From Intestinimonas butyriciproducens (GTDB taxonomy: Bacteria > Bacillota > Clostridia > Oscillospirales > Butyricicoccaceae): 64,000 nucleotides of DNA. Shown here piece after piece: positions 21,013-58,883 of the stretch (positions are counted from its first letter, which is position 1; every line of letters starts with the position of its first letter). Where the stretch lies: NCBI RefSeq assembly GCF_016901775.1, contig NZ_JACJKW010000001.1, forward strand, positions 62,001-126,000, given 5' to 3'. Position numbers and translations under genes: made by a program. Below the pieces are notes generated by a model. It saw nothing but the letters and a program-made list of their open reading frames with translations, made no database searches and was not told where the DNA came from.

Positions 21013-21170
21013 TCGAAAAAGTGGCAAAGCCGCTTTTTCGAGTTTTTGCAAGGGGCTGCGTGCAGCCATTGGGCCACACTTGCCCCTTGAGAAGTGTAAA
21101 AACCGACGCACAGGTCGCCGGTTTTTACAAATTAGTGAGGGGTAGAACGAACAATCCCTTCTAGCCAGAT
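21013..21170 (+). repeat. Structured repeat element, copy A
   Basis: One of four related elements in the window. In order: hairpin P1 at 21013-21041 (TCGAAAAAGTGGC/GCCGCTTTTTCGA); P2 CAAGGGGC pairing with GCCCCTTG; inner P3 GTG-CA-GCC/GGC-CAC; P4 at 21096-21128 (GTAAAAACCG/CGGTTTTTAC with loop ending CACAGGTCG); then a conserved tail GAGGGGTAGAAC. The exact 3' end is uncertain. The 318-base gap 20901-21218 holds only this element, its flanking hairpin and the aldolase's upstream sequence. Here the element is antisense to both neighbouring genes. Confidence 0.85.
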
Positions 21171-21218
21171 AAATTTTTTGCCAGTCCGGAAGAAGACACA
21201 GTTACACTTTCTTTTCTC

Positions 21219-22301
21219 TTATTTCTGTTGGGCCGACAGGGCATCTACCGACAGAAGCGCTTGCTCCAGATTCTTCGGGCTGATTTCCCAGGCCATATTG
21301 TGGATGGACTCGCCAGGGGCACAGGCCTTTTCAGCAGCGATGATCACCCGGCTTTTGTCAGTGATCCCCATTTCTTCCAGGGTCACAGGCAATCCCACCG
21401 AGCGGCAGAAGCGATGCACCTGCCAGAATTCTTCTGTGGGGCCATCCTCCAACAGCAACTGGGCCAGAGTGCCATAAGCCACCACTTCTCCATGCATGGC
21501 GGTGAGTTCTTCCAGAGCGGTAAAACCGTTGTACACCGAATGGGCCACCGCCAGACCGCCGTTGTCAGCGCCTACACCGCTGAGATAGGTATTGGCTTCC
21601 ACAATGGCCTCCACCGCCGGAGTCAGCAGGCCTTGCTGAGCATCCACCTTAGCCAGAAGCCCCTTATCCTGCAAAGTATCCCAGCACAACCGGCACAGTG
21701 CCATGGCCGAGCGGGTTATGCCGCCATTTTCCAGGCTGGGCGCATGATTCCTCTCGCAGACCCGGGCCTCGAAGAAGGTGCCCAGGGCATCTCCCATGCC
21801 GGAAACCAAAAACCGTATCGGAGCCTTGGCGATGATGGAAGTATCTACAACCACCACATCCGGGTTCCGGGGATAGAACAGATAACTGTCAAAGGTACCA
21901 TCGTCCTGATAGATCACCGAAAGACCGGTGCAGGGAGCATCGGTGGCGCAAACGGTGGGGATGATGACCACCGGCTTATGCTGATAGTAGGCCGTGGCCT
22001 TGGCGGTATCAATGGCGCTGCCGCCGCCTACACCGCAGACCACATCGATTCCCTTTTCCTGAACCAGATGGCCCATTTTCTCGATTTCCCCACGGGAGCT
22101 GATGCCGCCGAAGGTCTCAAAATAAATCTGGGCTTCCGAGGAGGCAAAGCTCCGACGGATTTTATCCTCCGTGGCTTTTCGTCCACTTCCGCTGCAGATA
22201 AACAGGAAGCTCTTTCCCAAATCCTCTACATTCTGACGCAGTTCCAGCAATGCGTCCTCGCCCTGCACATATTTGGCGGGGGCCCGCATGAGTTTCAGCA
22301 T
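21219..22301 (-). CDS. Iron/zinc-containing alcohol dehydrogenase, glycerol-dehydrogenase (GldA) type
   Basis: 360 residues from the ATG at 22301, eight bases after GGAG. Group III dehydrogenase features: nucleotide-binding GVGGGSAIDTAKA near residue 92, then metal ligands in SGMGDALGTFFEAR (Asp), GLAVAHSVYNG (His) and TAMHGEVVAYG (His). This layout matches glycerol dehydrogenase-like proteins that interconvert a polyol and a ketone with NAD. The adjacent DapA-type aldolase suggests a small catabolic unit, but the substrate is unknown. Confidence 0.85.
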   Translation of the reverse strand: MLKLMRAPAKYVQGEDALLELRQNVEDLGKSFLFICSGSGRKATEDKIRRSFASSEAQIYFETFGGISSRGEIEKMGHLVQEKGIDVVCGVGGGSAIDTAKATAYYQHKPVVIIPTVCATDAPCTGLSVIYQDDGTFDSYLFYPRNPDVVVVDTSIIAKAPIRFLVSGMGDALGTFFEARVCERNHAPSLENGGITRSAMALCRLCWDTLQDKGLLAKVDAQQGLLTPAVEAIVEANTYLSGVGADNGGLAVAHSVYNGFTALEELTAMHGEVVAYGTLAQLLLEDGPTEEFWQVHRFCRSVGLPVTLEEMGITDKSRVIIAAEKACAPGESIHNMAWEISPKNLEQALLSVDALSAQQK

Positions 22302-22364
22302 AAGAATCACTCCTTTGCCCCCTATTGTAGTCTCTTTTCTTCTGTTTTCAAGAAGCAGATTTCA

Positions 22365-22428
22365 TAAAAAAACACAGGGATTTTGGTCAGTTTGTCAAAA
22401 GTTTAACATGGACCTGTTCCCTGTGTTT
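22365..22428 (-). terminator. Terminator with a long loop after the acyltransferase gene
   Basis: On the minus strand AAACACAGGGA and TCCCTGTGTTT pair across a loop of about 37 bases and are followed by a T run. Confidence 0.65.
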
Positions 22429-22445
22429 GATTGGCTTTCCCGTGC

Positions 22446-23507
22446 TTACATTCCGTATTTGCGCAGGAAGGGAATATGACTCATGATCCATGCTGCAACG
22501 AAGCTGAAAAGGAATACCAAAGCGGTAGCCACCGGCACGGCCGCCAGCGGTGTCCAGGTGACGGCATTCAATCCCAGGGCCACCAGGCGGCTGTTGAAAA
22601 AGGCGTGGACCAGGTACATCCCAAAGGACAACCGGGAAACCTTCAAACAAAAAGCCAGTCCCCATTTTCCCAGACGGGTTCCGTGGCAATGCTCTTTGAA
22701 AAAGAGGAAAAGCCCCACCGACATCATGGCCACATTGGGGGTGAGATAGAGAAACCAGGTCTCATTGGGAGCATTCCATTCCAGGCTGGCCACCACCGTC
22801 ATGCCCCAGGTCCACACCACCCCCAGGATCCCGGCGGCATAGATGAGCTTTTTCACTTTCGGCGTAAAGTCATAGGTCCTGAAGTAATACCCGGCCACAT
22901 AATAGCCGATATATCCCCCCAGCGCCTTCAGGTCCAGCCGGTACACCACGCCGCTGACCACCTGCCCTGCCTGAGTGCTGTTGAACGCAGGCAGAAAAAG
23001 AGTAAAAACAAAATAAAGCAGCAAAAAATACTCCAGATCCCGCCGGCTGGCCCCTTTGATCAAGAGGCGTAGAATGGGAGTGATGAGATACAGGCCCATG
23101 ATCATATAGAGAAACCACAAATGATAATGACCAAAAGCGATGTTGGTGATGATCTGCCCCAGGGAATCAGGCGTACCGGCCCGGCTGTTGAAAAAGGCGG
23201 TATACAGAGCATAGAAGGTGGACCAGATCAAAAAAGCGGCGGCAATGCGGGGCAGATTTTTGCGGAAAATGCTTTGATAGGTCACATTCCGCTGAGGGTC
23301 CAAAAAAAACATACCGCTGAGCATGACAAATACCGGCACACACCAGCGCACCAGGCTGTCAAACCCATTGAGGATCTGCCACTCTGTGCTGCGCACATCC
23401 ATCCCCGGCCAGTTGTTCCCACACACATGAACCACGATCACCGCAACCATGGCCAGAGCCCGCAAAAGGTCGGCATAGAGCAGCCGGCCCTGAGTATTCT
23501 CTTTCAT
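22446..23507 (-). CDS. Acyltransferase-3 family membrane protein
   Basis: 353 residues from the ATG at 23507 (MKENTQGRLLYADLLRALAM). It has about ten membrane segments and the acyltransferase_3 signature at the N-terminus: RLLYADLLRALAMVAVIVVH with the conserved His, then FVMLSGMFFL. Such proteins acetylate surface polysaccharides or cell-wall components; the acceptor is not evident. It is transcribed alone and flanked by divergent and terminator regions. Confidence 0.85.
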   Translation of the reverse strand: MKENTQGRLLYADLLRALAMVAVIVVHVCGNNWPGMDVRSTEWQILNGFDSLVRWCVPVFVMLSGMFFLDPQRNVTYQSIFRKNLPRIAAAFLIWSTFYALYTAFFNSRAGTPDSLGQIITNIAFGHYHLWFLYMIMGLYLITPILRLLIKGASRRDLEYFLLLYFVFTLFLPAFNSTQAGQVVSGVVYRLDLKALGGYIGYYVAGYYFRTYDFTPKVKKLIYAAGILGVVWTWGMTVVASLEWNAPNETWFLYLTPNVAMMSVGLFLFFKEHCHGTRLGKWGLAFCLKVSRLSFGMYLVHAFFNSRLVALGLNAVTWTPLAAVPVATALVFLFSFVAAWIMSHIPFLRKYGM

Positions 23508-23730
23508 TCTTTCTTCCCCTTTGTCTGGAATAGGTTCAGTATAGCACATCTGCCGCCGGAGGAAAACCGGACATTGCCTGCGCAAATGGATTTTTTCTCC
23601 AAACACACCTGGGTTTTGTGAAAAAAATAGGGTAAAATTGCCCGTTTCCTCTTGCATTTTTGTAAAAACTGTGTAAAATGATTCATTATCCCCAAAGGAT
23701 TTTATTTTATCCATTCAGGAGGTTATATAG

Positions 23731-24225
23731 ATGAAAAACGGCGAACTGATCGGCGAGATGATCGCCTGGGAGGAAGGCTCCCCCAAGCGGATCAATCATT
23801 TTCTGAAGGTCTATGGCTTTGCCAAGGCCATCGCTTCCCGGGAGCAGCTCAGCTCCACCACCATGAACATTGTGGAAACCGCCGCCATTCTCCACGATAT
23901 CGGCATCAAGCCCTGTCTGGAAAAGTACGGCTCCTGCCAGGGCAAGCAGCAGGAAGAAGAGGGCGAAAAGGCCTGCCGGGCTCTGATGGAAAAATGTGGC
24001 TATGCCGACAAGGAGTTTGTAGACCGGATCTGCTGGCTGGTGGCCCATCACCACAGCTACGACAATATCCAGGACATCGATTTGCAGATCCTCATTGAGG
24101 CTGATTTCCTGGTGAATCTGGATGAAAAACAGGCCGATCTGGCCACCATTGAAAAGGTGCAGGAAGACCATTTCAAAACAACCACCGGAAAGAAGTTCCT
24201 CCGGCAGCTGCTTCTCAGCAAATAA
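23731..24225 (+). CDS. HD-domain phosphohydrolase-like protein
   Basis: 164 residues with ribosome site AGGAGG. A compact HD domain: His at about 23 (RINHFLKVYGFA), the paired AILHDIG at residues 52-58, VAHHHSYDNI near 104 and a late Asp in IEADFLVN near 122. This set supports metal-dependent phosphohydrolase activity on a nucleotide-like substrate. No partner gene is evident. Confidence 0.8.
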   Translation: MKNGELIGEMIAWEEGSPKRINHFLKVYGFAKAIASREQLSSTTMNIVETAAILHDIGIKPCLEKYGSCQGKQQEEEGEKACRALMEKCGYADKEFVDRICWLVAHHHSYDNIQDIDLQILIEADFLVNLDEKQADLATIEKVQEDHFKTTTGKKFLRQLLLSK

Positions 24226-24240
24226 TCATGTGAAATTATC

Positions 24241-24280
24241 AAAAAAGGCTTCGGCAAAACCGAAGCCTTTTTTATTTTTT
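24241..24280. terminator. Terminator, left copy of a duplicated pair
   Basis: AAAAAAGGCTTCGG, loop CAAAA, CCGAAGCC, then TTTTTTATTTTTT. The first 27 bases are identical to the terminator at 25394-25420; the two flank the AT-rich XRE/DUF2752/TM2 block. It also separates convergent gene ends. Confidence 0.92.
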
Positions 24281-24577
24281 CTTTTCTTCCGCTTCTTTTT
24301 TTAAAATACGGAAATCTTCCACCACTTGGCGTAAATGCGTTACTACCCCCGGGGGAAGTCCGCTGACATCAATAAACTCTTCTTTTTCCAGTCCCAGCAA
24401 ATAGTCAGTAGAAACCGAGAAAATATCTGCCAGTTTTTTCAGCATCTCAATAGACGGCTGGATATTATCATTTTCCCAATTAGAAACACTTTGCTTAGTC
24501 ACACCTAAGCGCCTGGCCAATTCCACCTGACTCATTCCTCGGACCAACCGCAATGTGCGAATCTGATGGTTTAACAT
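24272..24577 (-). CDS. XRE-family helix-turn-helix regulator
   Basis: 101 residues from the ATG at 24577 (MLNHQIRTLRLVRGMSQVEL), preceded by AGAGGG. A classic Cro/CI HTH occupies residues 5-60 (GMSQVELARRLGVTKQSVSNWE, then LKKLADIFSVSTDYLLG). The C-terminus is charged and helical (EDFRILKKEAEEKKK). It is divergent from the DUF2752-TM2 pair and probably controls the shared intergenic region, which contains a perfect inverted repeat. Confidence 0.88.
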   Translation of the reverse strand: MLNHQIRTLRLVRGMSQVELARRLGVTKQSVSNWENDNIQPSIEMLKKLADIFSVSTDYLLGLEKEEFIDVSGLPPGVVTHLRQVVEDFRILKKEAEEKKK

Positions 24578-24623
24578 GAGAATCCCTCTAGTCAAATATT
24601 AGAATACTATTATATCAATATTG

Positions 24624-24660
24624 GTTGACAAAATAAAAATACTGTGGTATTTTTATTTTG
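24624..24660 (+). promoter_or_regulatory. Divergent control region with promoter and inverted-repeat operator
   Basis: TTGACA (24625-24630) and TATTTT (24648-24653), 17 bases apart, face the DUF2752 gene. A perfect inverted repeat, CAAAATAAAAATAC/GTATTTTTATTTTG with a TGTG centre (24629-24660), covers the spacer and -10. On the opposite strand a TATAAT (plus-strand 24609-24614) could serve the XRE gene. The placement fits a repressor operator, most simply for the adjacent XRE protein. Confidence 0.6.
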
Positions 24661-24677
24661 TACCAGAGGTGGCCTTT

Positions 24678-25025
24678 ATGCTCCAATTTTCTTGGAAAAC
24701 AGTCAGAAATCATCTTATTTTTTTGAGCATATTGGGTTTATTGTGTATCTGGGGATGTCCCCTGCGCAGACTAACGGGAATTTCTTGTCCTGGCTGTGGT
24801 TTAACCCGGGCATGGCTTTCTTTTTTGAAGGGACAATGGAACCTAGCAATCTCCTATCACCTCTTCTTTCTTCCCACACCTTTTTTTCTATTTTTATTTG
24901 CCCACAGTTCTTGTTATTTTGAAAAAAACTGTTCTTGGATACGCTCATCCTGTTTTTGCTTTTTTTCTTTGTTGTTCATTTATCATTTGTGCCGTTTGTG
25001 GCTTTTCCACATTTTATTGGAATAG
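24678..25025 (+). CDS. DUF2752-family membrane protein
   Basis: 115 residues from the ATG at 24678 with AGAGGTGG upstream. It contains the DUF2752 signature GISCPGCGLTRAW near residues 33-45 between hydrophobic segments, with two or three membrane spans in all. Function is unknown for the family. It is followed after 13 bases by a TM2-domain gene, a pairing common in Firmicutes. The coding sequence is visibly AT-richer than its neighbours. Confidence 0.82.
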   Translation: MLQFSWKTVRNHLIFLSILGLLCIWGCPLRRLTGISCPGCGLTRAWLSFLKGQWNLAISYHLFFLPTPFFLFLFAHSSCYFEKNCSWIRSSCFCFFSLLFIYHLCRLWLFHILLE

Positions 25026-25038
25026 GAGAGGATTTGAA

Positions 25039-25374
25039 ATGACGCAGGACAAAGTAGACACCTACATCATGACCAATCAAAAGTACTTACCAGCAGAGAA
25101 AATCGTTTTTCTCAAGCAAAAACTTCTGGAAATAGACGAAACTAAGTTTTCCTTGGTCTCAGCTGTGGAAATGAAAGATCCCACCACCCTTTTGCTGGTA
25201 TCCATTTTTCTGGGCACTTTGGGAATTGATCGCTTTATGCTGGGAGAAACCGGTATGGGTATTTTGAAACTCCTTACCGTGGGCCTGTGCGGTGTATTGA
25301 CCATTATCGATTGGTTTACCATCCAGAAAAAAACCCGGGATCTGAACTTCAATAACCTGATGTTAGTTTTATAA
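25039..25374 (+). CDS. TM2-domain membrane protein
   Basis: 111 residues from the ATG at 25039 with GGAGAGGA upstream. The N-terminal half is soluble (MTQDKVDTYIMTNQKYLPAEK). The TM2 domain follows with two membrane helices: LLLVSIFLGTLGIDRFMLGE with the conserved G-x-x-x-x-D-R-F, then GILKLLTVGLCGVLTIIDWF. Function is unknown. It is probably cotranscribed with the DUF2752 gene. Confidence 0.85.
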   Translation: MTQDKVDTYIMTNQKYLPAEKIVFLKQKLLEIDETKFSLVSAVEMKDPTTLLLVSIFLGTLGIDRFMLGETGMGILKLLTVGLCGVLTIIDWFTIQKKTRDLNFNNLMLVL

Positions 25375-25393
25375 TAAGAATTACAGCGTAAAT

Positions 25394-25431
25394 AAAAAAG
25401 GCTTCGGCAAAACCGAAGCCTTTTTATTTTT
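25394..25431. terminator. Terminator, right copy of a duplicated pair
   Basis: Its first 27 bases equal the hairpin at 24241-24267, followed by TTTTTATTTTT. It lies between the convergent TM2 and LysR gene ends. Confidence 0.92.
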
Positions 25432-26326
25432 GTTCTTCCAGGCCGCAGCACTCCTGCAGCGCATCGATGAATTTCTGCGCCGCCTTGGAAAAGACCTGAT
25501 ACCTCTTCCAGATGATGGACGCTGCTCCTTCCATCCGGGGATGCAGGGGGCGAAAACACAATTTACTGTCGCCGCTTACATTGATCAGCTTATCAAAGCA
25601 CAATGCATACCCCAGTCCCTCTTCCACCAGCAGCGAAGCATTGAACACCAGGTTATAAGTGGCTACCACAGACAGTTCTTCGATATCCCTCCCCATCCAC
25701 CGGGCCATGGGCCAGTGGTCGCTTTCCTGGGCCGAGAGGATCAGCGGCTTATCCCAAAGATCCTGAGGGGTGATGTGCTCTTTTTGCGCCAGGGGGGAAT
25801 CCCGGCGCATGAGAACACCCCATGTATCCCGGACAGGCAGTTTGATGGCCTGATATCTCCCGGTGTCCACCGGCCCATAAATGACCCCGAAATCAATCAG
25901 ACCTCTGTCCAGGTATTCCTTTACAAAAACGGCATTTCCGCTTCGGATGTGATAGTGGATACCAGGATATTGCTTTTGCAGGCAACAGGCCGCCCTGGCA
26001 AAAATACGGATGAGATCAGACTCCCCTGCACCGATATACACATCTCCCACAATCGTTTCATCGGAACAGGCAATTTCCCGCTGTGTCATGTGCACCAGTT
26101 CCAGAATCTCTTCGGCCCGCTTACGCAGGATCATTCCTTCCTGGGTGAGCATCACTTTTCGGGAGCCTTTGCTTCCCCGGATAAGCAGCTGTTTGCCTAC
26201 TTCCTCTTCCAGCGCCTTCAGCTGAGTGGATAACGTAGGCTGGGACAGGTGCAGGGAGCGGGCCGCAGCCGAAATGCTCTGCTCCCGGGCCACAGCCAAA
26301 AAATATTGCAGCACACGCAGTTCCAT
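25424..26326 (-). CDS. LysR-type transcriptional regulator
   Basis: 300 residues, normal LTTR length. The N-terminal winged helix reads MELRVLQYFLAVAREQSISA, SQPTLSTQLKALEEEVG. The C-terminal part is the periplasmic-binding-like effector domain (from about residue 90, GDVYIGAGESDLIRI). It is divergent from the redox operon beginning at 26468, with a LysR box between, so it most likely controls that operon in response to a small molecule. Confidence 0.92.
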   Translation of the reverse strand: MELRVLQYFLAVAREQSISAAARSLHLSQPTLSTQLKALEEEVGKQLLIRGSKGSRKVMLTQEGMILRKRAEEILELVHMTQREIACSDETIVGDVYIGAGESDLIRIFARAACCLQKQYPGIHYHIRSGNAVFVKEYLDRGLIDFGVIYGPVDTGRYQAIKLPVRDTWGVLMRRDSPLAQKEHITPQDLWDKPLILSAQESDHWPMARWMGRDIEELSVVATYNLVFNASLLVEEGLGYALCFDKLINVSGDSKLCFRPLHPRMEGAASIIWKRYQVFSKAAQKFIDALQECCGLEEQK

Positions 26327-26362
26327 TCAATCCCCTCCATCCACAGAATAACAAATTTAGCT

Positions 26363-26377
26363 ATAGGTTTCAACTAT
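26363..26377. promoter_or_regulatory. LysR box in the divergent intergenic region
   Basis: ATAG, seven bases, CTAT: a symmetrical T-N11-A motif of the LysR type, about 90 bases before the SDR start and 37 before the LysR start. Additional A/T-rich half-sites (TTCCTAT, ATAAATAAG) follow and could be the activation subsite. Confidence 0.6.
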
Positions 26378-26467
26378 ACTTTCCTATCATAAATAAGTAT
26401 TTGATATATATTTGGCTGCGGATTATACTGAAATTAAAAATAAACAAATCGGGAAAAGAGGTTTTTT

Positions 26468-27238
26468 ATGGATAAGCAAATGCTTCAGGGCAAAGTGGCC
26501 ATCATCACCGGGGCCAGCTATGGCATGGGCCAGACCATGGCCGAGCTTTTCGCTGAGGAAGGAGCGGCCGTCGTCCTCACTGCCCGGGGACAGGAAAAAC
26601 TGGACCAGGTGGTGGAAGACATCCGGGCCAAAGGCGGCCGGGCCATCGGCGTAACAGCCGATGTGTGCTCCTCTGAGGACACCAAGCGGGTTTTTGAAAC
26701 GGCGCTGGAGACCTTTGGCGATGTGGATATTCTCATCAACAACGCCGGCATCGGCGAACAAAAGATCATCGACGAAACCGATGATGATTGGATGCTCTAT
26801 GTGATGAATACCAATCTGGGCGGACCGATGCGTTATATCCGGGAAGCACTGAAAATCTTCCTTCCCAAAAACGACGGCGTGATCATCAACATCTCTTCGG
26901 TCAATGGCACCCGTCCCTTCTGCGGCGCCACCTATACTTCCACCAAGGGCGCCCTGAACACCCTGACCAAAAATGTAGCCATGCGCCTGATCGACACCAA
27001 CATCCGCTGCAATGCTGTAGCTCCTGGCGCTACCGTTACTCCTGCCCATGTAGCCAACAAGGCCGGCCAGCAGCCAGGCGGCGCCAAAATGCTGGAGCAC
27101 AGCGGCCATTTCGTCTATTTCCCCGGTCCGGAATGCGATCCCATGGACCAGGCTTATGCCTGTCTGTTCCTGGCCAGCAAAATGGGCCGCCATGTAAAAG
27201 GCCAGGTCATTCAGGTGTGCAACGGCGCCTTCCTTTAA
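26468..27238 (+). CDS. Short-chain dehydrogenase/reductase (SDR)
   Basis: 256 residues. Classical SDR: GKVAIITGASYGMGQTMAEL with the TGxxxGxG cofactor motif near residue 14, LINNAGIGEQ near 88, and the catalytic Ser in NISSVNG with YTSTK near 157. It reduces or oxidises a carbonyl/alcohol with NAD(P). The specific substrate is not visible. It is the first gene of the LysR-flanked plus-strand cluster. Confidence 0.9.
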   Translation: MDKQMLQGKVAIITGASYGMGQTMAELFAEEGAAVVLTARGQEKLDQVVEDIRAKGGRAIGVTADVCSSEDTKRVFETALETFGDVDILINNAGIGEQKIIDETDDDWMLYVMNTNLGGPMRYIREALKIFLPKNDGVIINISSVNGTRPFCGATYTSTKGALNTLTKNVAMRLIDTNIRCNAVAPGATVTPAHVANKAGQQPGGAKMLEHSGHFVYFPGPECDPMDQAYACLFLASKMGRHVKGQVIQVCNGAFL

Positions 27239-27290
27239 TAAAATACACCCGGCCAGACAACTGCGGAACAAAAAGGAGGAGATTGCACCG

Positions 27291-27818: not shown

Positions 27819-27842
27819 CCACTGTAAGGAGGATGCTGCTCT

Positions 27843-28580: not shown

Positions 28581-28583
28581 CAA

Positions 28584-30208: not shown

Positions 30209-30222
30209 AGGAGAGAAACCAT

Positions 30223-31317: not shown

Positions 31318-31329
31318 CAACCAAAACAA

Positions 31330-31349
31330 GGCGTACCTCAGGATGCGCC
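31330..31349. terminator. Hairpin on the 3' side of element copy B (duplicated flank)
   Basis: AAGGCG...CGCCTT hairpin around the CCTCAGG loop region. On the minus strand it is followed by GTTTTG. It is a direct repeat (15 of 20 bases, all differences transitions) of the segment at 31538-31557 on the other side of the element. Confidence 0.6.
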
Positions 31350-31379
31350 TTCACACTGTCAAATAACTCATATTATGGG

Positions 31380-31528
31380 GTCAGGCCTTTTGTCCTGTCC
31401 TTCATCAATCTGCAAAAACCGGCGACCTGTGCGCCGGTTTTTGCACTTCTCAAGGGACAAGTGTGCGCCAAAGCGTGCACGCAGTCCCTTGCAAAAGCTC
31501 AAAAAAGTGGCAAAAGCCACTTTTTTGA
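31380..31528 (-). repeat. Structured repeat element, copy B
   Basis: Minus orientation, sense to the gene at 31566-32219. P1 31499-31528 (TCAAAAAAGTGGC/GCCACTTTTTTGA), P2 CAAGGGA/TCCCTTG, P3 GTG-CA-CGC/GCG-CAC, and P4 31412-31444 (AAAAACCGGCG/CGCCGGTTTTT, loop CACAGGT). The tail beyond P4 is less similar to the other copies. The 248-base gap holds the element and its two flanking hairpins. Confidence 0.85.
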
Positions 31529-31534
31529 CATCCT

Positions 31535-31560
31535 CACGGCGTATTTCAAAATACGCCGTG
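31535..31560. terminator. Hairpin on the 5' side of element copy B (duplicated flank)
   Basis: CACGGCGTATTT and AAATACGCCGTG form a near-perfect palindrome directly downstream of the minus-strand gene ending at 31566. No T run follows in the sense direction. Confidence 0.6.
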
Positions 31561-34044: not shown

Positions 34045-34072
34045 AAAAAGCACTCCTGCCTGCAGGAGTGCT
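34044..34072 (+). terminator. Hairpin on the 5' side of element copy C (duplicated flank)
   Basis: AAAAAAGCACTCCTG, loop CCTG, CAGGAGTGCT, starting at the stop codon of the upstream gene. It is the same hairpin as at 34259-34292, but the T run has been replaced by GCGCGC. Confidence 0.75.
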
Positions 34073-34079
34073 GCGCGCA

Positions 34080-34258
34080 TCAAAAAAGTGGCTTCTGCCA
34101 CTTTTTTGAGTTTTTGCAGGGGTCTGCATGCACGCCTATGGCGCACACTTTCCCCTTGAGAAGTGCAAAAAGCCACCCGCAGGTCGCGGCTTTTTGCGAA
34201 TCAATAAGGGTAGAACACAGAATCCGCTTCCGCTATATCTGTTTTCCACAGCCTGTGC
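34080..34258 (+). repeat. Structured repeat element, copy C
   Basis: P1 34080-34109 (TCAAAAAAGTGGC/GCCACTTTTTTGA), P2 AGGGG/CCCCT, P3 TG-CA-CGCC/GGCG-CA, and P4 34165-34197 (GCAAAAAGCC/GGCTTTTTGC), where the inner stem is GCC/GGC instead of CCG/CGG in the other copies. The tail AAGGGTAGAAC is followed by GCTATATCTGTTTTCC, similar to copy D. Sense to the gene ending at 34044. Confidence 0.88.
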
Positions 34259-34292
34259 AAAAAAGCACTCCTGTTTACAGGAGTGCTTTTTT
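34259..34292. terminator. Terminator on the 3' side of element copy C (duplicated flank)
   Basis: AAAAAAGCACTCCTG, loop TTTA, CAGGAGTGCTTTTTT: the stem matches the hairpin at 34044-34072 exactly, with an intact T run. It also separates the convergent csoR gene. Confidence 0.9.
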
Positions 34293-49985: not shown

Positions 49986-50111
49986 TGTTTCCTCCCTCTC
50001 CAGGGCACACCCTGGGGATTTTGTAATTTTAAATGAAAACTAGACTTTTCGTATAATTTTTCTTTTCTTTTTCTCTTCTGCCATTATACCAAGTTTCCCG
50101 GAAAAATGCAC

Positions 50112-50133
50112 GAAGAATCTTTGAAGAATCTTT
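50112..50133. repeat. Two tandem 11-base repeats in the dsdA-dlt intergenic region
   Basis: GAAGAATCTTT occurs twice in tandem, followed by a partial third copy GAAGAAAT. The 273-base gap 49986-50258 otherwise shows a TATACT (50202-50207) that could be the dlt -10, without a good -35. The one-turn spacing suggests a regulator site for the dlt operon. Confidence 0.45.
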
Positions 50134-50258
50134 GAAGAAATCCCAGAGGAAATTATGAAAATTGAAAGATTTTCGCAAGGAAATTATCGAAAGGGCTATG
50201 CTATACTGTGCCGGTAACAATCCCCGACCCATCCGGCCGGGCGAAAGGAGGTCCTTTG

Positions 50259-52918: not shown

Positions 52919-52942
52919 TTCATTCCAAAGGAGGAAACATCC

Positions 52943-53188
52943 ATGAATACCACACAAGAAAAAATCCTTTCCATTCTCTCCGGCATTTGCGGCGAAACGC
53001 TGGAAGAAGATCAGCTGGATCTGGATCTGTTTGAAAACGACCTGCTGGATTCCCTGGGACTGGTGGAGTTGCTGGTGGAGCTGGAAAGCCAGTTTGATGT
53101 GAAACTCTCCCCCTCTGAGGTGAGCCGCAGCCAGATCGCCACACCCCGGCTCATCGCCGATTTGGTGGAAAGCCGGATGGCCCAATGA
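52943..53188 (+). CDS. dltC: D-alanyl carrier protein
   Basis: 81 residues. An acyl-carrier fold whose 4'-phosphopantetheine serine is in LLDSLGLVELL (Ser about 37). It receives D-alanine from DltA and delivers it to DltB. AAAGGAGG precedes the start, and the stop overlaps dltD (ATGA). Confidence 0.96.
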   Translation: MNTTQEKILSILSGICGETLEEDQLDLDLFENDLLDSLGLVELLVELESQFDVKLSPSEVSRSQIATPRLIADLVESRMAQ

Positions 53189-54354
53189 AAAAGTGCAAGG
53201 CCCTGGGATTGGCCTTTCTCCTCTTTTCTTTTACCGTCCTTGTGATTCACCTGGGAATCACAAAGCTGGACTTTACCGGCCCTTCCTTTGACGCTTGGGT
53301 CAACGACGACAAGCTGCTGTACAGCCGGGCCATCACCGAAAACCTGACTGCCACTTCCATTCCGGTTTTCGGCTCTTCGGAATTTCGCCACGGCCGCTCC
53401 ACTCCCTATCATCCGGCCAAAGTCCTGTCGGGCCAGCCTTTCCGGCTGATGCTCATCGGTGCGGGCTATTACCAATCTCTTTACCACGCCACCGCTTTGG
53501 CGGCGATGGGAGATGAACTGCCCCAGAAACAGGCGGTATTCATTCTCTCCCCCCAATGGTTCCGGGGCAAAGGCGTATCCAGCCAGGTGTACACCTCCCG
53601 CTTCTCGGAGTACAACTACATCCAGATGCTGCAAAATCCCCATTTATCGGAAGACACCAAAAACTATATTTTGGAGCGCACCGACAAACTGCTCAAGGCC
53701 GACCCGGCCATGGCCAAACGGGTCAAAAGCTATCAGCGGGTCTATCTCACCAAAAACGCCACCTTCCTGGAGAAGCTGTCCTGCAAACTCTATCTGGCTT
53801 TTTTGGAGGACAAGCTCATGGTCTCCCTCTCCCTCAAGGCCCTGGCCGGAGGTGTTTCCTCCCAGGAGTATCCCCAGGGCGCCCCTGAGCCCGACTGGAA
53901 GACCCTCAGCGAAAAAGCCGCGGTGGACGGCGCCAAAGCCAACACCACCAACCCCTTTGGCATGGACAACGGCTTTTATAACCTGTATAAAAACAACTAC
54001 ATCAAGAGCAAAAAAGGCTCTGCGGCCAAAGCCGACTATCTGAGCTCCCAGGAATATGGAGACATGATCTGCTTCTTAAAAGTGTGCCGGGATCTTCAGA
54101 TTCGGCCTTTGCTGGTCAGTCTGCCCTTCAACGGCCCCTGGTATGATTATATGGGATTGTCTTCTGACAAGCGCCAGGAGTACTATGAAAAGATCCAGGC
54201 CGTTGCCCGGGATTACGGCGCGGAACTTCTGGACCTTTCCTCCTATGAATACACTCCCTATTTCTTTGAGGACAACACACACATCGCCAGAGAAGGGTGG
54301 GTGAAACTGAATGAAGGGCTTTATCAATTCGCTTCACAGGCTCTGGCAGAGTGA
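53185..54354 (+). CDS. dltD: D-alanine transfer protein DltD
   Basis: 389 residues. N-terminal anchor (ALGLAFLLFSFTVLVIHLG), then an SGNH-like extracytoplasmic domain: VFGSSEFRHGRSTPYHP with the nucleophile Ser near residue 70, VFILSPQWF, and the late Asp-His pair in EDNTHIAREGW. DltD finishes transfer of D-alanine to teichoic acids on the outer face. A small ORF starts inside its last 44 bases. Confidence 0.95.
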   Translation: MKKCKALGLAFLLFSFTVLVIHLGITKLDFTGPSFDAWVNDDKLLYSRAITENLTATSIPVFGSSEFRHGRSTPYHPAKVLSGQPFRLMLIGAGYYQSLYHATALAAMGDELPQKQAVFILSPQWFRGKGVSSQVYTSRFSEYNYIQMLQNPHLSEDTKNYILERTDKLLKADPAMAKRVKSYQRVYLTKNATFLEKLSCKLYLAFLEDKLMVSLSLKALAGGVSSQEYPQGAPEPDWKTLSEKAAVDGAKANTTNPFGMDNGFYNLYKNNYIKSKKGSAAKADYLSSQEYGDMICFLKVCRDLQIRPLLVSLPFNGPWYDYMGLSSDKRQEYYEKIQAVARDYGAELLDLSSYEYTPYFFEDNTHIAREGWVKLNEGLYQFASQALAE

Positions 54355-54472
54355 GCGCTTCCGCTTTTTTGCTCAGGTGGCTTTCTTTTACCTGCTGCTC
54401 CTGGTTTTTTACGGTTATCTCATGCTGGCCAACCTGTCCAGCGCTCCTCAATTTGTCTATGCCCAGTTTTGA
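54311..54472 (+). CDS. Probable DltX-like D-Ala incorporation peptide, overlapping dltD
   Basis: 53 residues in the +1 frame relative to dltD: MKGFINSLHRLWQSER, a membrane span (FFAQVAFFYLLLLVFYGYLM, about 19-38), and a C-terminal ending FVYAQF. Size, single span and the F-[IV]-Y-x-x-F terminal motif match DltX, which in Bacillus and Staphylococcus lies upstream of dltA and is needed for D-alanylation. Here it follows dltD, overlapping by 44 bases, and ends just before the operon terminator. A GGGTGG lies upstream at loose spacing. It is below usual length cut-offs and easily missed. Confidence 0.75.
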   Translation: MKGFINSLHRLWQSERFRFFAQVAFFYLLLLVFYGYLMLANLSSAPQFVYAQF

Positions 54473-54479
54473 AAACAGC

Positions 54480-54519
54480 AAAAAGACCCTCGCTTTTTTA
54501 AAAAGCGAGGGTCTTTTTT
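54480..54519 (+). terminator. Terminator of the dlt operon
   Basis: AAAAAGACCCTCGCTTTT, three-base loop, AAAAGCGAGGGTCTTTTTT; it starts eight bases after the dltX-like stop. Confidence 0.95.
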
Positions 54520-54522
54520 CAT

Positions 54523-54611
54523 TGGCGGAGAGAAAGGGATTCGAACCCTTGGTCCCTTGCGGGATCACTGGTTTTCAAGACCAGCTCCTTAAACCACTCG
54601 GACATCTCTCC
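54523..54611 (-). tRNA. tRNA-Ser(UGA)
   Basis: Minus strand, 89 bases. Acceptor stem GGAGAGA/TCTCTCC with discriminator G and encoded CCA; anticodon arm CTGGT-CTTGAAA-ACCAG giving anticodon TGA; a long class II variable arm (ATCCCGCAAGGGA); T arm AAGGG-TTCGAAT-CCCTT. It reads UCN serine codons, chiefly UCA. Confidence 0.97.
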
Positions 54612-54679
54612 ATTTGGGGATACATAAATGATATTTTATCTCTTTTCTGTACCCCTGTCAAGCCATCCACTCCCTGGAT

Positions 54680-55366
54680 CTATAAAACGCCAAACAATAT
54701 AAACCCTACGGTGTTGATGGCGAAATTGGCAAACATATGGGTGACCCAGGAGGGATAAAGGCTTTCGCTCTTTTCATTGAGGTAATTAAAAATACACCCT
54801 CCCACAAAAAGCCCTGTGAGCAGCACCAGAAACACCCACCAGGAAAACATCCCGGCCAGCATCCCCCCATGGTAAAAAGCAAACAGCGCCGGACTGAATA
54901 CATAGGCCAGTTTCCGGCCGATATAGGGTTTTAGCGAAAGGAAAGCAAAGCCCCGAAAGAAAAATTCCTCCAGAAAGGAATTGGCCAGGGAGATATACAG
55001 GGACACAAAGATAAAATTCTCGCCGGTAATACCGTGCTTTTCCTGCAAAGTGCCTGTTACCTGAGAAAAATCCACAAAGCTCTTTGTACAGAAATAGCCT
55101 CCCACGATCACCCCGTAAACCAGAAGCCCCAACAGCACGGCCTGCACCATGGTCTTTCCATTCAGACGGAATAGTTTTTTCAGAAGGGGCCGCTCCTTTT
55201 TGTTCCACCCAAAATAAAAAAGGGGCAGCAGCAGGAAAAACAAAATTTTCACCAGCACTTTTGGCACATAGTCCGGCTGAAGAAAAGCATCCACCAGGGT
55301 CACGGCCAGGGAAAGAAATACCGCCGACAAAATAATATAAAGCCCTTGCTGCCGCTTCCCAGTCAT
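54680..55366 (-). CDS. CPBP-family intramembrane metalloprotease
   Basis: 228 residues with six to eight membrane segments. The CPBP (Abi) catalytic motif is NSFLEEFFFRGFAF near residue 128, with the second motif FAFYHGGMLAG near 163 providing a His. Relatives cleave membrane-embedded substrates, some serving as bacteriocin immunity proteins; the substrate here is unknown. It lies alone after the tRNA gene. Confidence 0.88.
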   Translation of the reverse strand: MTGKRQQGLYIILSAVFLSLAVTLVDAFLQPDYVPKVLVKILFFLLLPLFYFGWNKKERPLLKKLFRLNGKTMVQAVLLGLLVYGVIVGGYFCTKSFVDFSQVTGTLQEKHGITGENFIFVSLYISLANSFLEEFFFRGFAFLSLKPYIGRKLAYVFSPALFAFYHGGMLAGMFSWWVFLVLLTGLFVGGCIFNYLNEKSESLYPSWVTHMFANFAINTVGFILFGVL

Positions 55367-55399
55367 CCTCTTCTTTCCCCTTTCACAAAATAACGCTTC

Positions 55400-55981
55400 C
55401 TATTTCAGCAGATAGAACACAAAATCCACCGCCATCACCAGCGCCAGTATGCCTGTCAGCCATGCCAAAAGCCTGTCCGGTATGCGCCGGGCCAGCTTGT
55501 AAAACAGCGGCTGGATCACATAGAGAAACAGCAGTCCGCCCAAGCCAAAACGAATAGAGGGTGACAAGGCGATCCGTCCCTGGAAATTGATTTTATAGTC
55601 CACATAGGTCTGCCAGGGCCAGCTGCCCACGGTGTACTCCATCCAATAGGTAGCCGCCAGCTCAATGGCTGTGGCTACCGTCATACAACCCAAAAAAACC
55701 AAGCCCACTTGCAGCCATCGCCGGGCTCCTTTGACTGGCTTTTGCACATACCGGCCAAAACACAAAAGAAAGACCAAAGCCCCAATACCATAAATGGGCA
55801 AATAAGGCCCAAAAAGGACACCCCGATTGGAAAATCCCCACCGGTAAACCACCACTTCCAGGAAAACTTCATAGAGCCAGCCAATGACGCAATACAGGAA
55901 AAAATACAAGTAGATCTCCTGGAAACGGCGGACCATGGTCTTGCTACCGTAAAATCGGGGGCGTTGCTTCATCCTCCTCAT
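55400..55981 (-). CDS. CmpB-type putative ABC transporter permease (PF06541-like)
   Basis: 193 residues, four or five membrane segments. The family signature is GWLYEVFLEVVVYRWGFSNR followed by GVLFGPYLPIYGIG at residues 34-67. The name comes from a proposed permease role, which is not well proven; no ATPase is adjacent on this transcript. The ATG at 55981 is preceded by AAGGAGGG. Confidence 0.83.
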   Translation of the reverse strand: MRRMKQRPRFYGSKTMVRRFQEIYLYFFLYCVIGWLYEVFLEVVVYRWGFSNRGVLFGPYLPIYGIGALVFLLCFGRYVQKPVKGARRWLQVGLVFLGCMTVATAIELAATYWMEYTVGSWPWQTYVDYKINFQGRIALSPSIRFGLGGLLFLYVIQPLFYKLARRIPDRLLAWLTGILALVMAVDFVFYLLK

Positions 55982-56193
55982 AAAATCCCTCCTTCGCTTT
56001 TCTCTGTCTCACTTCCTTTTTGTTGGCCTCTATTATACTATGCCCCTGCCCCCCTGTCCATAAAAACTCCTCCGCTCCCTTGTCAAAATGGGAACATGGA
56101 TTTTACTCTCCCCAGTCTATCGCTATCAGATCTTCCGTTTGCAGAGATTCCCTGACAATCCCCTTGAGCGATTGCTTTGATGGACCCTTTATA

Positions 56194-56224
56194 GAAAAAA
56201 CCAGGCGGAAAATCCGCCTGGTTT
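56194..56224 (-). terminator. Terminator of the ABC/DUF4418 operon
   Basis: Minus-strand AAACCAGGCGG, loop, CCGCCTGGTTT with a T run. Confidence 0.93.
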
Positions 56225-56230
56225 CACGCA

Positions 56231-56905
56231 TCAATCAATAATCCCTTTTTTCTCAATTCTTCCCTTTGCCATTGCATAATGGCTCACCCCTGTTCGGAGA
56301 CAGGAAAGATCATGGGTGCTGATCAAAATGGCCTTTTCCTTCTGTCTCATAAAATAATCCAGGATAATGCCTGTGTTTTCCTCATCCAGATCACTGGTGG
56401 GCTCATCGGCCACCACCAGCTGGGGGCCATGGACAAAAGCCCGGACAATAGCAGCTCGCCGCCGCTCGCCGCCGGAAAGCTCCGCAGGATAATTCCCAGC
56501 CAAGTCTGCCATTCTAAATTCTTCCAGCAGGCTCATCCCCCTTGTTTCCAACTCCTTTTTATCTTTCCAGCCGGAAAGAAGGTGAGGCAGACAGATATTT
56601 TCCAGCACCGTAAAATTATAAAGCAGACTGTCCCCCTGAAGAATATAACTGATATGCTGGCGGCGCAGCGCTGTACGCTTTGCTGCAGAAAGGGAACTGA
56701 TCTTCTGCCCGTCAAAGTAGACCTGGCCCTCATCCGGCTGGATAATTCCAGAAATCAGATGAAACAGCGTGCTTTTGCCGCAGCCAGAAGGTCCGGTGAG
56801 CACCAGCACCTCTCCTTTTTCCACTTGCAGATCCACATGATCTACCGCTTGGAAGGTCTTTCCCTGACGAGTATAGTTTTTGGTCAATCCTTCTGTTTTT
56901 ACCAT
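56231..56905 (-). CDS. ABC transporter ATP-binding protein (LolD/MacB-like)
   Basis: 224 residues from the ATG at 56905. Walker A LTGPSGCGKSTLF near residue 38, signature LSGGERRRAAIV near 136, Walker B LVVADEPTSDLD near 156 and the switch His in LISTHDLSC. It belongs to the type VII mechanotransmission ABC class with the FtsX-like permease encoded upstream, whose stop overlaps its start (TGATG). Confidence 0.93.
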   Translation of the reverse strand: MVKTEGLTKNYTRQGKTFQAVDHVDLQVEKGEVLVLTGPSGCGKSTLFHLISGIIQPDEGQVYFDGQKISSLSAAKRTALRRQHISYILQGDSLLYNFTVLENICLPHLLSGWKDKKELETRGMSLLEEFRMADLAGNYPAELSGGERRRAAIVRAFVHGPQLVVADEPTSDLDEENTGIILDYFMRQKEKAILISTHDLSCLRTGVSHYAMAKGRIEKKGIID

Positions 56906-58122
56906 CACAGTTCCTCTCCCTTCAGCAATCCGTCCAGCCGGGAACGGCCCACCTTCCAAGCGGAATACAGAGAGGACAACAGGGAAACCGCGACAGACAA
57001 TCCTATGCAAGTGCCTGCCAAGGGCAAAAGATATTGCCAGCTGGTATCCAGGCGCGGAATGGAGAGCATCACCTTAATCGGCGTGGAAAAAAGTTCTAGT
57101 CCGGCAAATGCTCCCACCGCTCCCAGAAAGCCGCCCAAAAGGCCGATCACCAGCCCTTCTGCTAAAACAATACCTGACAACCTGCCTGCTCCCACTCCCA
57201 GAGAGGACAAAATACCGAACTCCACCGTACGCTCATTGATGGTGATGGTAAATACCGAAGCCAGCGCCACCACCACCAGCACCAACAGCACCCCCATAAG
57301 CACTCTGGTGTAGCCGTCCATGCTCTCCACCGAACGGAGCACGCCGCTGAAAATACCGTTTGTGGTATAGGCCTTTACCGGCGCTCCTTCAATGGAATAG
57401 TTGATCGCTCGGGCGATTGCTTTGGCATCACTGCCTTCCTCCACCCGAATCATCAGCGAAGAAACCAAATCATGAGCCGATTGTTCCGGCTCTCCAAAGG
57501 CATCCGCCCAGCCCTGGCTGCTGCGGATCTGCTCTGCTGTATCGGCTGTCATAAAGACACAGGTATCATAACTGGTGTTGGTTCGCTCCAGCCGGCCAAT
57601 GACAGAATAGTTCTCCCCGAAAAATTTAATGCTGTCAGGCTCGGGAGGGTTAATCAGTGCGCCGATATACATTTCCCCTTCCCCAGGCAATGGCAGCCCT
57701 TCCTCTTCCAGCCAGGGAGTTACGATAAAATCAGTCTGTGGATCAAAGACAATCATCTGGGTGGCAGCCGAACAGCAATCGGCGGCAAGAGAGGCCATAT
57801 AGAGCTGGGGAGTACACTGATCCACTCCCTCCAGCTGGCTGATGGTATCAGCCCATTTCTTGTCAAAATCAAAGCTGCACAGCTCTCCCATAAAAAGAGA
57901 ATCTGCCATTTCCCCCTCATATTCTTCCGGCACCACGATAATATCTGCCCCCAGCCGGTCGGTGGTGTTTTGCAGACTGCTTTCCATGCTGTCTGTCAAC
58001 ACCGAACAGCAAAACAGGCAGGCGGAAAGCATAAAAGCAAAAAACACCATGCACAATGTACGCACCGAACGGCGTTTGAGATTTTTCAGTGCTGTTTTAC
58101 CAATAATCCCCACGGAACTCAT
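56905..58122 (-). CDS. FtsX/MacB-like ABC transporter permease
   Basis: 405 residues from the ATG at 58122. One N-terminal span (TLCMVFFAFMLSACLFCC), a large outer domain (about residues 45-255) and three C-terminal spans, the last after GILSSLGVGAGRLSGIVLAE, the typical FtsX-domain loop. This architecture drives extracytoplasmic work such as export or signalling to a kinase. Organised with a DUF4418 gene and the ATPase in one transcript. Confidence 0.92.
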   Translation of the reverse strand: MSSVGIIGKTALKNLKRRSVRTLCMVFFAFMLSACLFCCSVLTDSMESSLQNTTDRLGADIIVVPEEYEGEMADSLFMGELCSFDFDKKWADTISQLEGVDQCTPQLYMASLAADCCSAATQMIVFDPQTDFIVTPWLEEEGLPLPGEGEMYIGALINPPEPDSIKFFGENYSVIGRLERTNTSYDTCVFMTADTAEQIRSSQGWADAFGEPEQSAHDLVSSLMIRVEEGSDAKAIARAINYSIEGAPVKAYTTNGIFSGVLRSVESMDGYTRVLMGVLLVLVVVALASVFTITINERTVEFGILSSLGVGAGRLSGIVLAEGLVIGLLGGFLGAVGAFAGLELFSTPIKVMLSIPRLDTSWQYLLPLAGTCIGLSVAVSLLSSLYSAWKVGRSRLDGLLKGEEL

Positions 58123-58126
58123 CCTT

Positions 58127-58513
58127 TTACTTGTTTCCTTTCCGTACAATGCCCCCCAGCTGGAGCAGGATTCCCACCGCAGACAAACCATTGACAATGG
58201 GGAAGGTTTTCATATTACAGGCCATTTCTGCATTGGCGCAGCCACCGATCAGCAGATTGACCAAAAGCAGGCCGGAGGCAAAAACCACAATCCCCACAAA
58301 ACACAGTACTTTCAGGCAAGAATCGTTTTTCACCAGAAGCTGAGCCAGCCCCAATGCCACCAGGATCACTCCCACAGCAATAAGAGACTGGGCACTCCAA
58401 TGGCACTTCATCACTTTTTCGGTAACCGGACAGGGCTGAAACAATGTCTGCGGCCCAATAGCCAACAGCGCTCCCAGGAAGATGGTCCCTACCGATACTA
58501 TTTTCTGCTTCAT
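58127..58513 (-). CDS. DUF4418-family membrane protein
   Basis: 128 residues from the ATG at 58513. Four membrane segments and the family motif KVMKCHWSAQSLIAVGVILV near residues 34-53, with paired cysteines (GGCANAEMACNMKTFPIVNG). Always or often encoded with an FtsX-like permease and ATPase, as here; function unknown. It is the first gene of the three-gene operon. Confidence 0.85.
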   Translation of the reverse strand: MKQKIVSVGTIFLGALLAIGPQTLFQPCPVTEKVMKCHWSAQSLIAVGVILVALGLAQLLVKNDSCLKVLCFVGIVVFASGLLLVNLLIGGCANAEMACNMKTFPIVNGLSAVGILLQLGGIVRKGNK

Positions 58514-58661
58514 TTTTCTCTTCCTTTCTGTTTTGGCGAAAAAAAACAAACAATGTTTTTTGTCTGCCTCACTATATAACCATATTTCCGTTCAAATGTC
58601 CAAGTGATATTTTCAATAGATTCCTTTTTATTCATCGACTTTTACTATCCGGCAAAAGAAA

Positions 58662-58685
58662 ACAGGCGGCCAAAGGCCGCCTGTC
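58662..58685. terminator. Hairpin on the 3' side of element copy D (duplicated flank)
   Basis: ACAGGCGGCC/GGCCGCCTGT palindrome followed on the minus strand by TTTTCTTTT. On that strand it shares 26 identical bases with the hairpin at 58893-58916, including the start of the T run. Confidence 0.88.
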
Positions 58686-58883
58686 AGTCTGTCGATAAAC
58701 CGATATAGCCAGAGGGTAGAAGCTTGCTTTCCCCCTCATCCATTCGCAAAAACCGGCGACCTGTGCGTCGGTTTTTGCACCTCTCAAGGGACAAGTGTGG
58801 CCGATTGACCGCCAGAAGCGGCCAATCGGCTGCATGCAGACCCTTGCAAAAACTCGAAAAAGTGGCTTTCGCCACTTTTTCGA
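58686..58883 (-). repeat. Structured repeat element, copy D
   Basis: Minus orientation, sense to the gene at 58932-60587. P1 58854-58883 (TCGAAAAAGTGGC/GCCACTTTTTCGA), P2 CAAGGG/CCCTTG, an extended P3 at 58800-58830 (GCCGATTG...CAATCGGC with an inner CCGC/GCGG), P4 58746-58778 (GCAAAAACCG/CGGTTTTTGC, loop CACAGGTCG). The tail ends GCTATATCGGTTTATC, matching copy C. The 418-base gap 58514-58931 holds this element, its two hairpins and about 150 bases of A/T-rich sequence upstream of the DUF4418 operon. Confidence 0.88.

What the first reader, a model, noticed from the sequence alone, without database searches (positions are those of the whole stretch)
21013..58883. A family of four structured intergenic elements with covarying stems
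Bodies at 21013-21170 (+), 31380-31528 (-), 34080-34258 (+) and 58686-58883 (-) share an ordered architecture: P1 hairpin with TCRAAAAAGTGGC arms, P2 CAAGGG/CCCTTG, P3 with a conserved CA bulge, P4 with a CACAGGTCG-type loop, and a GAGGGTAGAAC-like tail in some copies. Stem sequences change with pairing preserved: P2 GGGGC/GCCCC against GGGA/TCCC; P3 GCC/GGC, CGC/GCG, CGCC/GGCG or a 13-bp stem; P4 T-A against C-G closing pairs and CCG/CGG against GCC/GGC. Covariation argues for selection on RNA (or single-strand DNA) structure. I do not recognise the family.
Basis: seen in the sequence. Interest (0 to 1): 0.88.

Follow-up and report, generated by a model that had tools for sequence, protein, structure and literature searches.

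The report
Mobile hairpin elements that duplicate terminators
The four look-alike pieces are copies of a small jumping DNA element that lands in the hairpins that end bacterial genes, usually copying the whole hairpin as it lands, and that carries its own set of conserved hairpins whose job is not yet known.

Summary
The four bodies are real and homologous. They belong to a family of 76 copies (two partial) in this genome, with relatives in gut Oscillospirales (P4 hairpin in 50 of 394 order genomes sampled, own genome included). No Rfam 15 family matches at gathering score. The elements have inverted ends (GAGCGTGTCGAAAAA / TTTTTCGACAGTCTG), and 50 of 74 copies are flanked on both sides by the same, locus-specific terminator palindrome. 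Of 20 IS1182-family transposase loci examined in the order, 9 have such ends and a 27-39 bp palindrome duplication. So these are probably non-autonomous IS1182-end elements that insert into terminators and duplicate the hairpin. No such transposase was found in this genome. The internal hairpins covary strongly, but G·U is nearly absent (3 of 1,179 P4 cells) and orientation to transcription is mixed (23 sense, 14 antisense), so covariation alone does not show RNA function. P4, with a near-constant loop ACGCRCAKGTCG, is the deepest part and also occurs in different surroundings in two Saccharibacteria and one Rickettsiales assembly. Its function is open.

The parts
21005..21189 (+). copy 1 of the element (185 bp, short-P3 subfamily)
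   Evidence: covariance-model match G000:C1:83005-83189, 186 bits
20981..21004 (+). left terminator-like palindrome of copy 1; no right-hand duplicate detected
   Evidence: sequence; flank test negative for this copy
21013..21041 (+). P1 hairpin of copy 1; its 5' arm holds part of the left inverted-repeat core TGTCGAAAAA
21049..21089 (+). P2/P3 hairpin of copy 1
21095..21129 (+). P4 hairpin of copy 1 with loop ACGCACAGGTCG
31351..31536 (-). copy 2 of the element (186 bp)
   Evidence: covariance-model match G000:C1:93351-93536, 196 bits
31535..31560 (-). left terminator-like palindrome of copy 2
   Evidence: sequence
31328..31351 (-). right palindrome of copy 2, similar to the left one but diverged; not significant by the flank test
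31451..31491 (-). P2/P3 hairpin of copy 2
   Evidence: sequence
31411..31445 (-). P4 hairpin of copy 2
   Evidence: sequence
34072..34256 (+). copy 3 of the element (185 bp)
   Evidence: covariance-model match G000:C1:96072-96256, 182.5 bits
34044..34072 (+). left copy of the duplicated terminator palindrome (AAAAAAGCACTCCTG..CAGGAGTGCT)
34259..34287 (+). right copy of the duplicated terminator palindrome, followed by the T-run
34117..34158 (+). P2/P3 hairpin of copy 3
   Evidence: sequence
34164..34198 (+). P4 hairpin of copy 3 (loop ACCCGCAGGTCG)
   Evidence: sequence
58684..58891 (-). copy 4 of the element (208 bp, subfamily with a longer P3 stem)
   Evidence: covariance-model match G000:C1:120684-120891, 175 bits
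58891..58916 (-). left copy of the duplicated terminator palindrome ACAGGCGGCCTTTGGCCGCCTGTTTT
58659..58684 (-). right copy of the same palindrome
58785..58846 (-). P2/P3 hairpin of copy 4
   Evidence: sequence
58745..58779 (-). P4 hairpin of copy 4

Best explanation
The four bodies are copies of a non-autonomous mobile element (a MITE) whose ends match IS1182-family insertion sequences. SHOWN: 76 copies; inverted ends; the same locus-specific terminator palindrome on both sides in most copies; IS1182-family genes in other genomes of the order with such ends and the same kind of palindrome duplication. INFERRED: the transposase recognises a palindrome (perhaps extruded as a cruciform) and joins the element's ends at the 5' foot of the palindrome on each strand. 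Gap filling then copies the whole hairpin, giving hairpin - element - hairpin - T-run. The outer halves keep the A-run on the left and the T-run on the right, so termination can survive and the element becomes a transcribed tail. INFERRED, weaker: the internal hairpins, above all P4 with its near-constant loop, are kept because the structure is needed for the element's own spread or for binding a host factor. The near absence of G·U fits upkeep as a perfect inverted repeat in DNA better than selection on RNA alone, but does not prove it.
For: Flank test: 50 of 74 copies beat every mismatched left/right pairing. Of 73 rescored, 49 pass and 20 of these are perfect; T fraction in the 6 bases after the hairpin is 0.21 for the left copy and 0.66 for the right (n=45), A fraction before it 0.48 and 0.23 (n=49). 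Other genera and the congener: 22 of 69 copies pass the same kind of test, six more are beaten by a single other row. Autonomous parents: 9 of 20 IS1182 loci examined have ends CAGNYTGTCRAAAAA and a palindrome duplication of 27-39 bp, exact in 8 and with 2 mismatches in 35 in one. The L147 transposase scores 403.8 bits against NF033551 (cut-off 270) and carries DDE_Tnp_1_6 and DUF772. Divergent intergenic sites: 0 of 66. Empty site, one locus: the congener's orthologue (84% identical) of the gene before copy 4 is followed by one hairpin and no element. Mechanism: PMC5678879 (section 29, part 1) gives this pathway as an option; PMC4923244 (passages) shows TnSha1/IS1272 inserting into terminator hairpins.
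Against: No IS1182 transposase was found in the own genome or its one held congener, by NF033551 (own genome) or by the L147 protein (which warns that an empty answer without a positive control shows nothing). 24 of 74 copies lack a detectable duplication, window copies 1 and 2 among them. 10 of 20 IS1182 loci examined showed no duplication in the flanks taken and one was too short. Some related structures show no IS1182 ends (before rbfA, between pheS and pheT, after rpmJ, gene names by my reading). Mobility was not tested by experiment, and only one empty site was read. Host terminator hairpins also have few G·T pairs (3 of 813), so low G·U is no proof of a DNA-level cause.
Confidence: 0.85

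Rival explanations
1. The interior is a functional structured RNA (regulator or sRNA) that travels on IS1182-type ends; the stems covary because the RNA is under selection.
For: Near-constant unpaired parts across genera: the P4 loop in 59 aligned rows from outside this genome (found with a model that includes the loop, and a few rows are reverse-strand matches), the linker GAGAAGTG before P4, and CTCTGC after P5 in 51 of 134 P4 hits from the order and the 17-mer scan, at least two of them by accident. Copies without IS ends lie in sense before rbfA and between pheS and pheT.
Against: G·U almost absent against 7.1% in tRNA, though host terminators are as low; mixed orientation to transcription; the P3 module differs between subfamilies of one genome. 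No transcript data.
Confidence: 0.35
2. The covariation is a by-product of DNA mutation: hairpin arms copy each other by template switching, so stems stay perfect without selection.
For: In 76 copies, cells changed on both sides number 40 in P1 and 73 in P4, against 29 and 17 G·T or A·C cells (P4 without its closing pair). Host hairpins on the two sides of one element can also differ with pairing kept (L009, L030, L046).
Against: Other mismatches add 30 cells in P1 and 20 in P4, and many P4 double changes are one inherited difference counted often. It does not explain the near-constant P4 loop and linkers.
Confidence: 0.3
3. Elements act mainly as portable bidirectional terminators; P1 and P4 are GC hairpins flanked by A5 and T5.
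For: P1 and P4 in most copies of this genome have AAAAA..TTTTT arms; copies lie at gene 3' ends.
Against: P4 lacks a 3' T-run in L050, L121, L123 and in the Flavonifractor-type copies, yet the loop is kept.
Confidence: 0.2
4. The hairpin pairs are not insertion duplications; the element evolved in place between two terminators.
For: 24 of 74 copies have no detectable duplication.
Against: The duplicated palindrome is locus-specific and perfect in 20 of 49, and 9 autonomous IS1182 loci show the same.
Confidence: 0.04

Closest known systems
IS1182-family insertion sequences (NF033551), including IS1272/TnSha1
   Same: Ends shared with autonomous members in this order; target is a palindrome, in many cases a transcription terminator (PMC4923244 passages, PMC5678879 section 29 part 1).
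   Different: IS1272/TnSha1 are reported to delete or replace the hairpin without duplication; here the whole hairpin is duplicated, as pathway b of PMC5678879 allowed. The window elements carry no transposase.
bcr1 of Bacillus cereus and BOX/RUP of pneumococcus (bcr1 recalled, papers seen only as a search listing; BOX, RUP and SPRITE seen in review passages)
   Same: Dispersed intergenic repeats with secondary structure.
   Different: Different ends and sequence by recall; not compared here.
IS-derived MITEs such as QMITE2 of Coxiella (review PMC10969869, passages)
   Same: About 190 bp, inverted ends, many copies, stable stem-loops.
   Different: Palindrome-length target duplication, and an interior with a near-constant loop shared across genera.
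Rfam 15 RNA families
   Same: None found.
   Different: At gathering score the window gave one tRNA and 20 related loci gave two T-box leaders, none of them at the elements.

Membership tests
MITE (non-autonomous IS derivative) | short, multi-copy, no room for a transposase gene | tested here: met
   76 copies; uncut copies about 175-256 bp
MITE (non-autonomous IS derivative) | terminal inverted repeats | tested here: met
   left GAGCGTGTCGAAAAA against CAGACTGTCGAAAAA, the reverse complement of the right end; in 29 of 40 copies of the first set the right end matched at 11 or more of 16 bases
MITE (non-autonomous IS derivative) | flanking direct repeat of the target | tested here: met
   50 of 74 copies
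IS1182 family derivative | ends and target duplication shared with full IS1182-family elements | tested here: met
   9 of 20 IS1182 loci examined, in other genera
IS1182 family derivative | transposase present in the same genome | tested here: not met
   0 matches in G000; the assembly is in 74 contigs, so a collapsed repeat could be missing
IS1272-type stem-loop replacement | target hairpin deleted or replaced | tested here: not met
   hairpin duplicated in 50 of 74 copies and at 9 IS1182 loci
known Rfam RNA family | score over the gathering threshold | tested here: not met
functional structured RNA | covariation beyond shuffled and slid controls | tested here: met
   R-scape not available
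functional structured RNA | strand-specific tolerance of G·U | tested here: inconclusive
   22 G·T against 33 A·C; host terminators also low
functional structured RNA | discrete transcript | not testable with these tools
   no RNA-seq
REP elements moved by RAYT/Y1 transposase | REP-associated tyrosine transposase in the genome | not tested
   no search made for Y1 transposases

The most novel reading that the evidence does not exclude
P4, a hairpin with the near-constant loop A-S-G-C-R-C-A-K-G-T-C, is a nucleic-acid tag recognised by a factor shared by distant bacteria. Unrelated elements have acquired it: IS1182-end elements in Oscillospirales, end-less copies before rbfA and between pheS and pheT, and a separate repeat after tRNA-like sequence in Saccharibacteria. 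Its binding would be what lets these elements persist or spread.
Probability: 0.25. Interest if true: 0.8.

Novelty: new variant of a known kind. Interest (0 to 1): 0.6.

Why it matters
It shows, in natural genomes, insertions that duplicate a whole terminator hairpin, which had been listed as an option for IS1182-type transposases, and it offers autonomous elements on which to test the idea. The duplication would explain how a mobile element can enter terminators in dozens of places without destroying termination. It also points to a conserved structure, frequent in some gut Oscillospirales, for which Rfam 15 has no family. And it warns that strong covariation in dispersed repeats need not mean a functional RNA.

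Tried and rejected
Known RNA: no Rfam match at gathering score at the elements; matches at loose thresholds are below gathering scores.

Phage or plasmid origin: no DNA match of copy 1 in the phage or plasmid collections. The 17-mer of the P4 loop and arms is in 6 stretches of IMG/VR; these were not looked at further.

Orientation test: the first attempt with longest open frames was misleading in this genome and was replaced by a home-made codon-usage caller. Of 76 records, one of them a partial copy, both flanks were called in 66.

G·U test: suggestive only, because host terminator hairpins in these flanks also have few G·T pairs (my scoring counts G·T as a mismatch there). The tRNA control counts pairs drawn by ARAGORN and gave no A·C pairs at all.

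P4 loop counts: the pattern used itself fixes several loop letters, so invariance in those counts is partly by construction; 27 of 150 rows failed the pattern or the arm test, several because the first loop base is G. The fairer counts are from the model alignments.

Recalled, not pursued: a likeness of AACTCTGCGAGGCT to the PyrR binding loop. Recalled, not checked: the ISfinder entry for IS1182 (direct repeats 0-60, palindromic targets); a review that I expected to describe it (asked for by DOI) is not held.

Rows dropped: L035 (contig edge), L104 (same place as a copy in L016) and the partial copies L114-L118 were left out of the flank count, L016 also. Of 30 IS1182 loci returned, 20 were examined; the other 10 were left out. 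A4 was drawn from rows whose arms pair. A1 used coordinates a few bases off for two rows and was only looked at.
Full report
WHAT WAS CHECKED. The four bodies were read on their own strands. They have the described P1, P2, P3 and P4 hairpins. BLAST with copy 1 found 40 places covering 114 or more of its 158 bases in the 2.58 Mb genome. A covariance model from 29 copies (A2, model R1) matched 76 copies, two of them partial, at 108 bits or more in 75 loci. Structure measures exceed both controls of the count of structure pairs. Rfam 15 has no family for them at gathering score (20 related loci); looser searches gave only matches below gathering scores.

THE MISSED FEATURE. Printed with flanks, most copies start just after a terminator-like hairpin and end just before a second copy of the same hairpin. 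I aligned each left flank with its own right flank and with the right flanks of all other copies: 50 of 74 copies beat every mismatched pairing (about one is expected by chance). Rescored without one locus, 49 of 73 pass; 20 of these duplications are perfect, while the median identity of those 20 elements to their nearest other copy is 0.86. So the elements differed before they inserted, or the hairpins are kept alike; the data do not decide. T-rich sequence follows the right hairpin (0.66) more than the left (0.21); A-rich sequence precedes the left (0.48) more than the right (0.23). This is what insertion with duplication of the palindrome predicts. Of the window copies, 3 and 4 have the duplication; copy 2 has similar but diverged hairpins; copy 1 has only the left one. 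In 69 related copies from the congener and other genera, 22 pass the same kind of test and six more are beaten by a single other row, apparently near-identical neighbours.

THE ENDS AND THE PARENT. Ends are GAGCGTGTCGAAAAA on the left and TTTTTCGACAGTCTG on the right in the commonest form. IS1182-family transposases (NF033551) were matched in 27 of 87 genomes of the family, 4 of them over the cut-off, and one, L147, had such ends and a duplicated 30 bp terminator palindrome. Its protein, searched in 394 genomes of the order, matched 33 at 1e-30. Of 30 loci returned I examined 20: 9 have the ends CAGNYTGTCRAAAAA and a palindrome duplication of 27-39 bp, exact in 8 and with 2 mismatches in 35 in one; one was too short to score and 10 showed none in the flanks taken. 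L147 is one of the 9. Its protein is an IS1182-family transposase (403.8 bits, cut-off 270) with DDE_Tnp_1_6 and DUF772. None was found in the window's genome.

INSERTION SITES. By a home-made codon-usage caller, 66 of 76 records had genes called on both sides: 29 convergent, 23 same sense as the element, 14 antisense, 0 divergent. In the one held congener, the orthologue (84% identical) of the gene before copy 4 is followed by a single hairpin and no element (one locus read). The congener gave one element match of its own, with quite different stems and the same order of parts, between two similar hairpins.

HOW IT MOST LIKELY WORKS. Shown: ends, copies, duplications, parent elements. Inferred: an IS1182-type transposase treats the palindrome as target and joins the ends at its 5' foot on both strands; repair copies the palindrome. 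PMC5678879 (section 29, part 1) lists this as pathway b, while arguing that IS1272 replaces the hairpin. PMC4923244 (passages) reports that TnSha1/IS1272 inserts into hairpins, several of them terminators, with partial deletion. Duplication keeps a hairpin with the T-run at the right and, for the other direction, the A-run at the left.

THE INTERIOR. Counting the own genome, model R1 matched 35 of 87 genomes of the family, in 8 of 15 genera. A P4-only model (R2) matched 50 of 394 genomes of the order, in 20 of 169 genera (only 16 candidates scored per genome), and 2 of 398 in the phylum sample, the own genome and one other of the same order. Contig lengths identify G004 with Agathobaculum desmolans; the GTDB family name Butyricicoccaceae is recalled. 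Fuller versions read P1, P2/P3, GAGAAGTG, P4, P5, AACTCTGCGAGGCT; CTCTGC follows P4 in 51 of 134 hits, at least two by accident. In 131 distinct P4 hairpins every arm position takes several Watson-Crick pairs. The loop is near-constant: in 76 copies of this genome ACGCACAGGTCG with few departures, the commonest G for the first A (13), and in 59 model-aligned rows from elsewhere mostly ACGCRCATGTCG. The pattern fixes several loop letters, so its loop counts are partly by construction. Some copies lack IS ends and lie before rbfA, between pheS and pheT, and after rpmJ (gene names are my reading of the sequence, not of an annotation).

RNA OR DNA. In 76 copies, G·T and A·C departures in P1, P2 and P4 (without the closing pair) number 22 and 33. 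In 131 P4 hairpins they number 3 and 8 of 1,179 cells, with 22 other mismatches. In 31 tRNAs from the fetched loci and window G·U is 48 of 679. In 73 of 81 host hairpins beside the elements G·T is 3 of 813, so the rarity is shared with terminators. I conclude that covariation alone does not establish RNA function here; perfect inverted repeats in DNA, kept by selection or by templated mutation, fit as well.

BEYOND THE ORDER. The assemblies behind L255 and L278 (Saccharibacteria) and L263 (Rickettsiales) hold 5, 3 and 5 P4 matches at E up to 0.001. Their surroundings differ from the Oscillospirales elements and, in two Saccharibacteria loci, follow tRNA-like sequence, so simple contamination is unlikely though not excluded. 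They came in through an exact-word scan, which selects them; the further matches in the same assemblies were not selected that way.

NOVELTY. In the listings, and the passages read, I saw no description of this element or of observed whole-hairpin duplication by IS1182 elements. The held library lacks most subscription papers, and PMC8040213 (passages) reports thousands of candidate RNAs from human gut whose tables I did not search. I therefore call it a new variant of a known kind: MITEs with IS1182-type ends and a conserved hairpin interior.

Noticed in passing
L103, L109, L110, L111, L113 (and variants L095, L114): A third P3 subfamily in this genome replaces the short hairpin by a module of about 85 nt (GGCGGCGAGCCGCC ... 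CCCCGCC); its origin is unknown.
   Followed up: no
L139, L140, L142; L141, L143; L138, L144; L145: P4-bearing structures without IS1182 ends occupy like positions in different species: before rbfA, between pheS and pheT, after rpmJ; one lies before cinA (gene names by my reading). Conserved position suggests a cis role.
   Followed up: partly
L446, L458, L451, L445, L457: Saccharibacteria carry a different small repeat (hairpin, AAGAACT-like linker, P4), in two loci just after tRNA-like sequence.
   Followed up: partly
G231:C1:23256-23656: Three P4 hairpins 179 bp apart, perhaps a tandem array, in a genome of another family of the order.
   Followed up: no
L135, L141, L145: A recurrent hairpin of the form GTATAGGGGGCTTCAAAAGCCCCCTATATAC stands near the 5' end of these end-less copies, perhaps the mark of another mobile family.
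   Followed up: no
L009, L030, L046 flanks: The two host hairpins beside one element differ in sequence with pairing largely kept in both, so terminators here also show compensatory change.
   Followed up: partly
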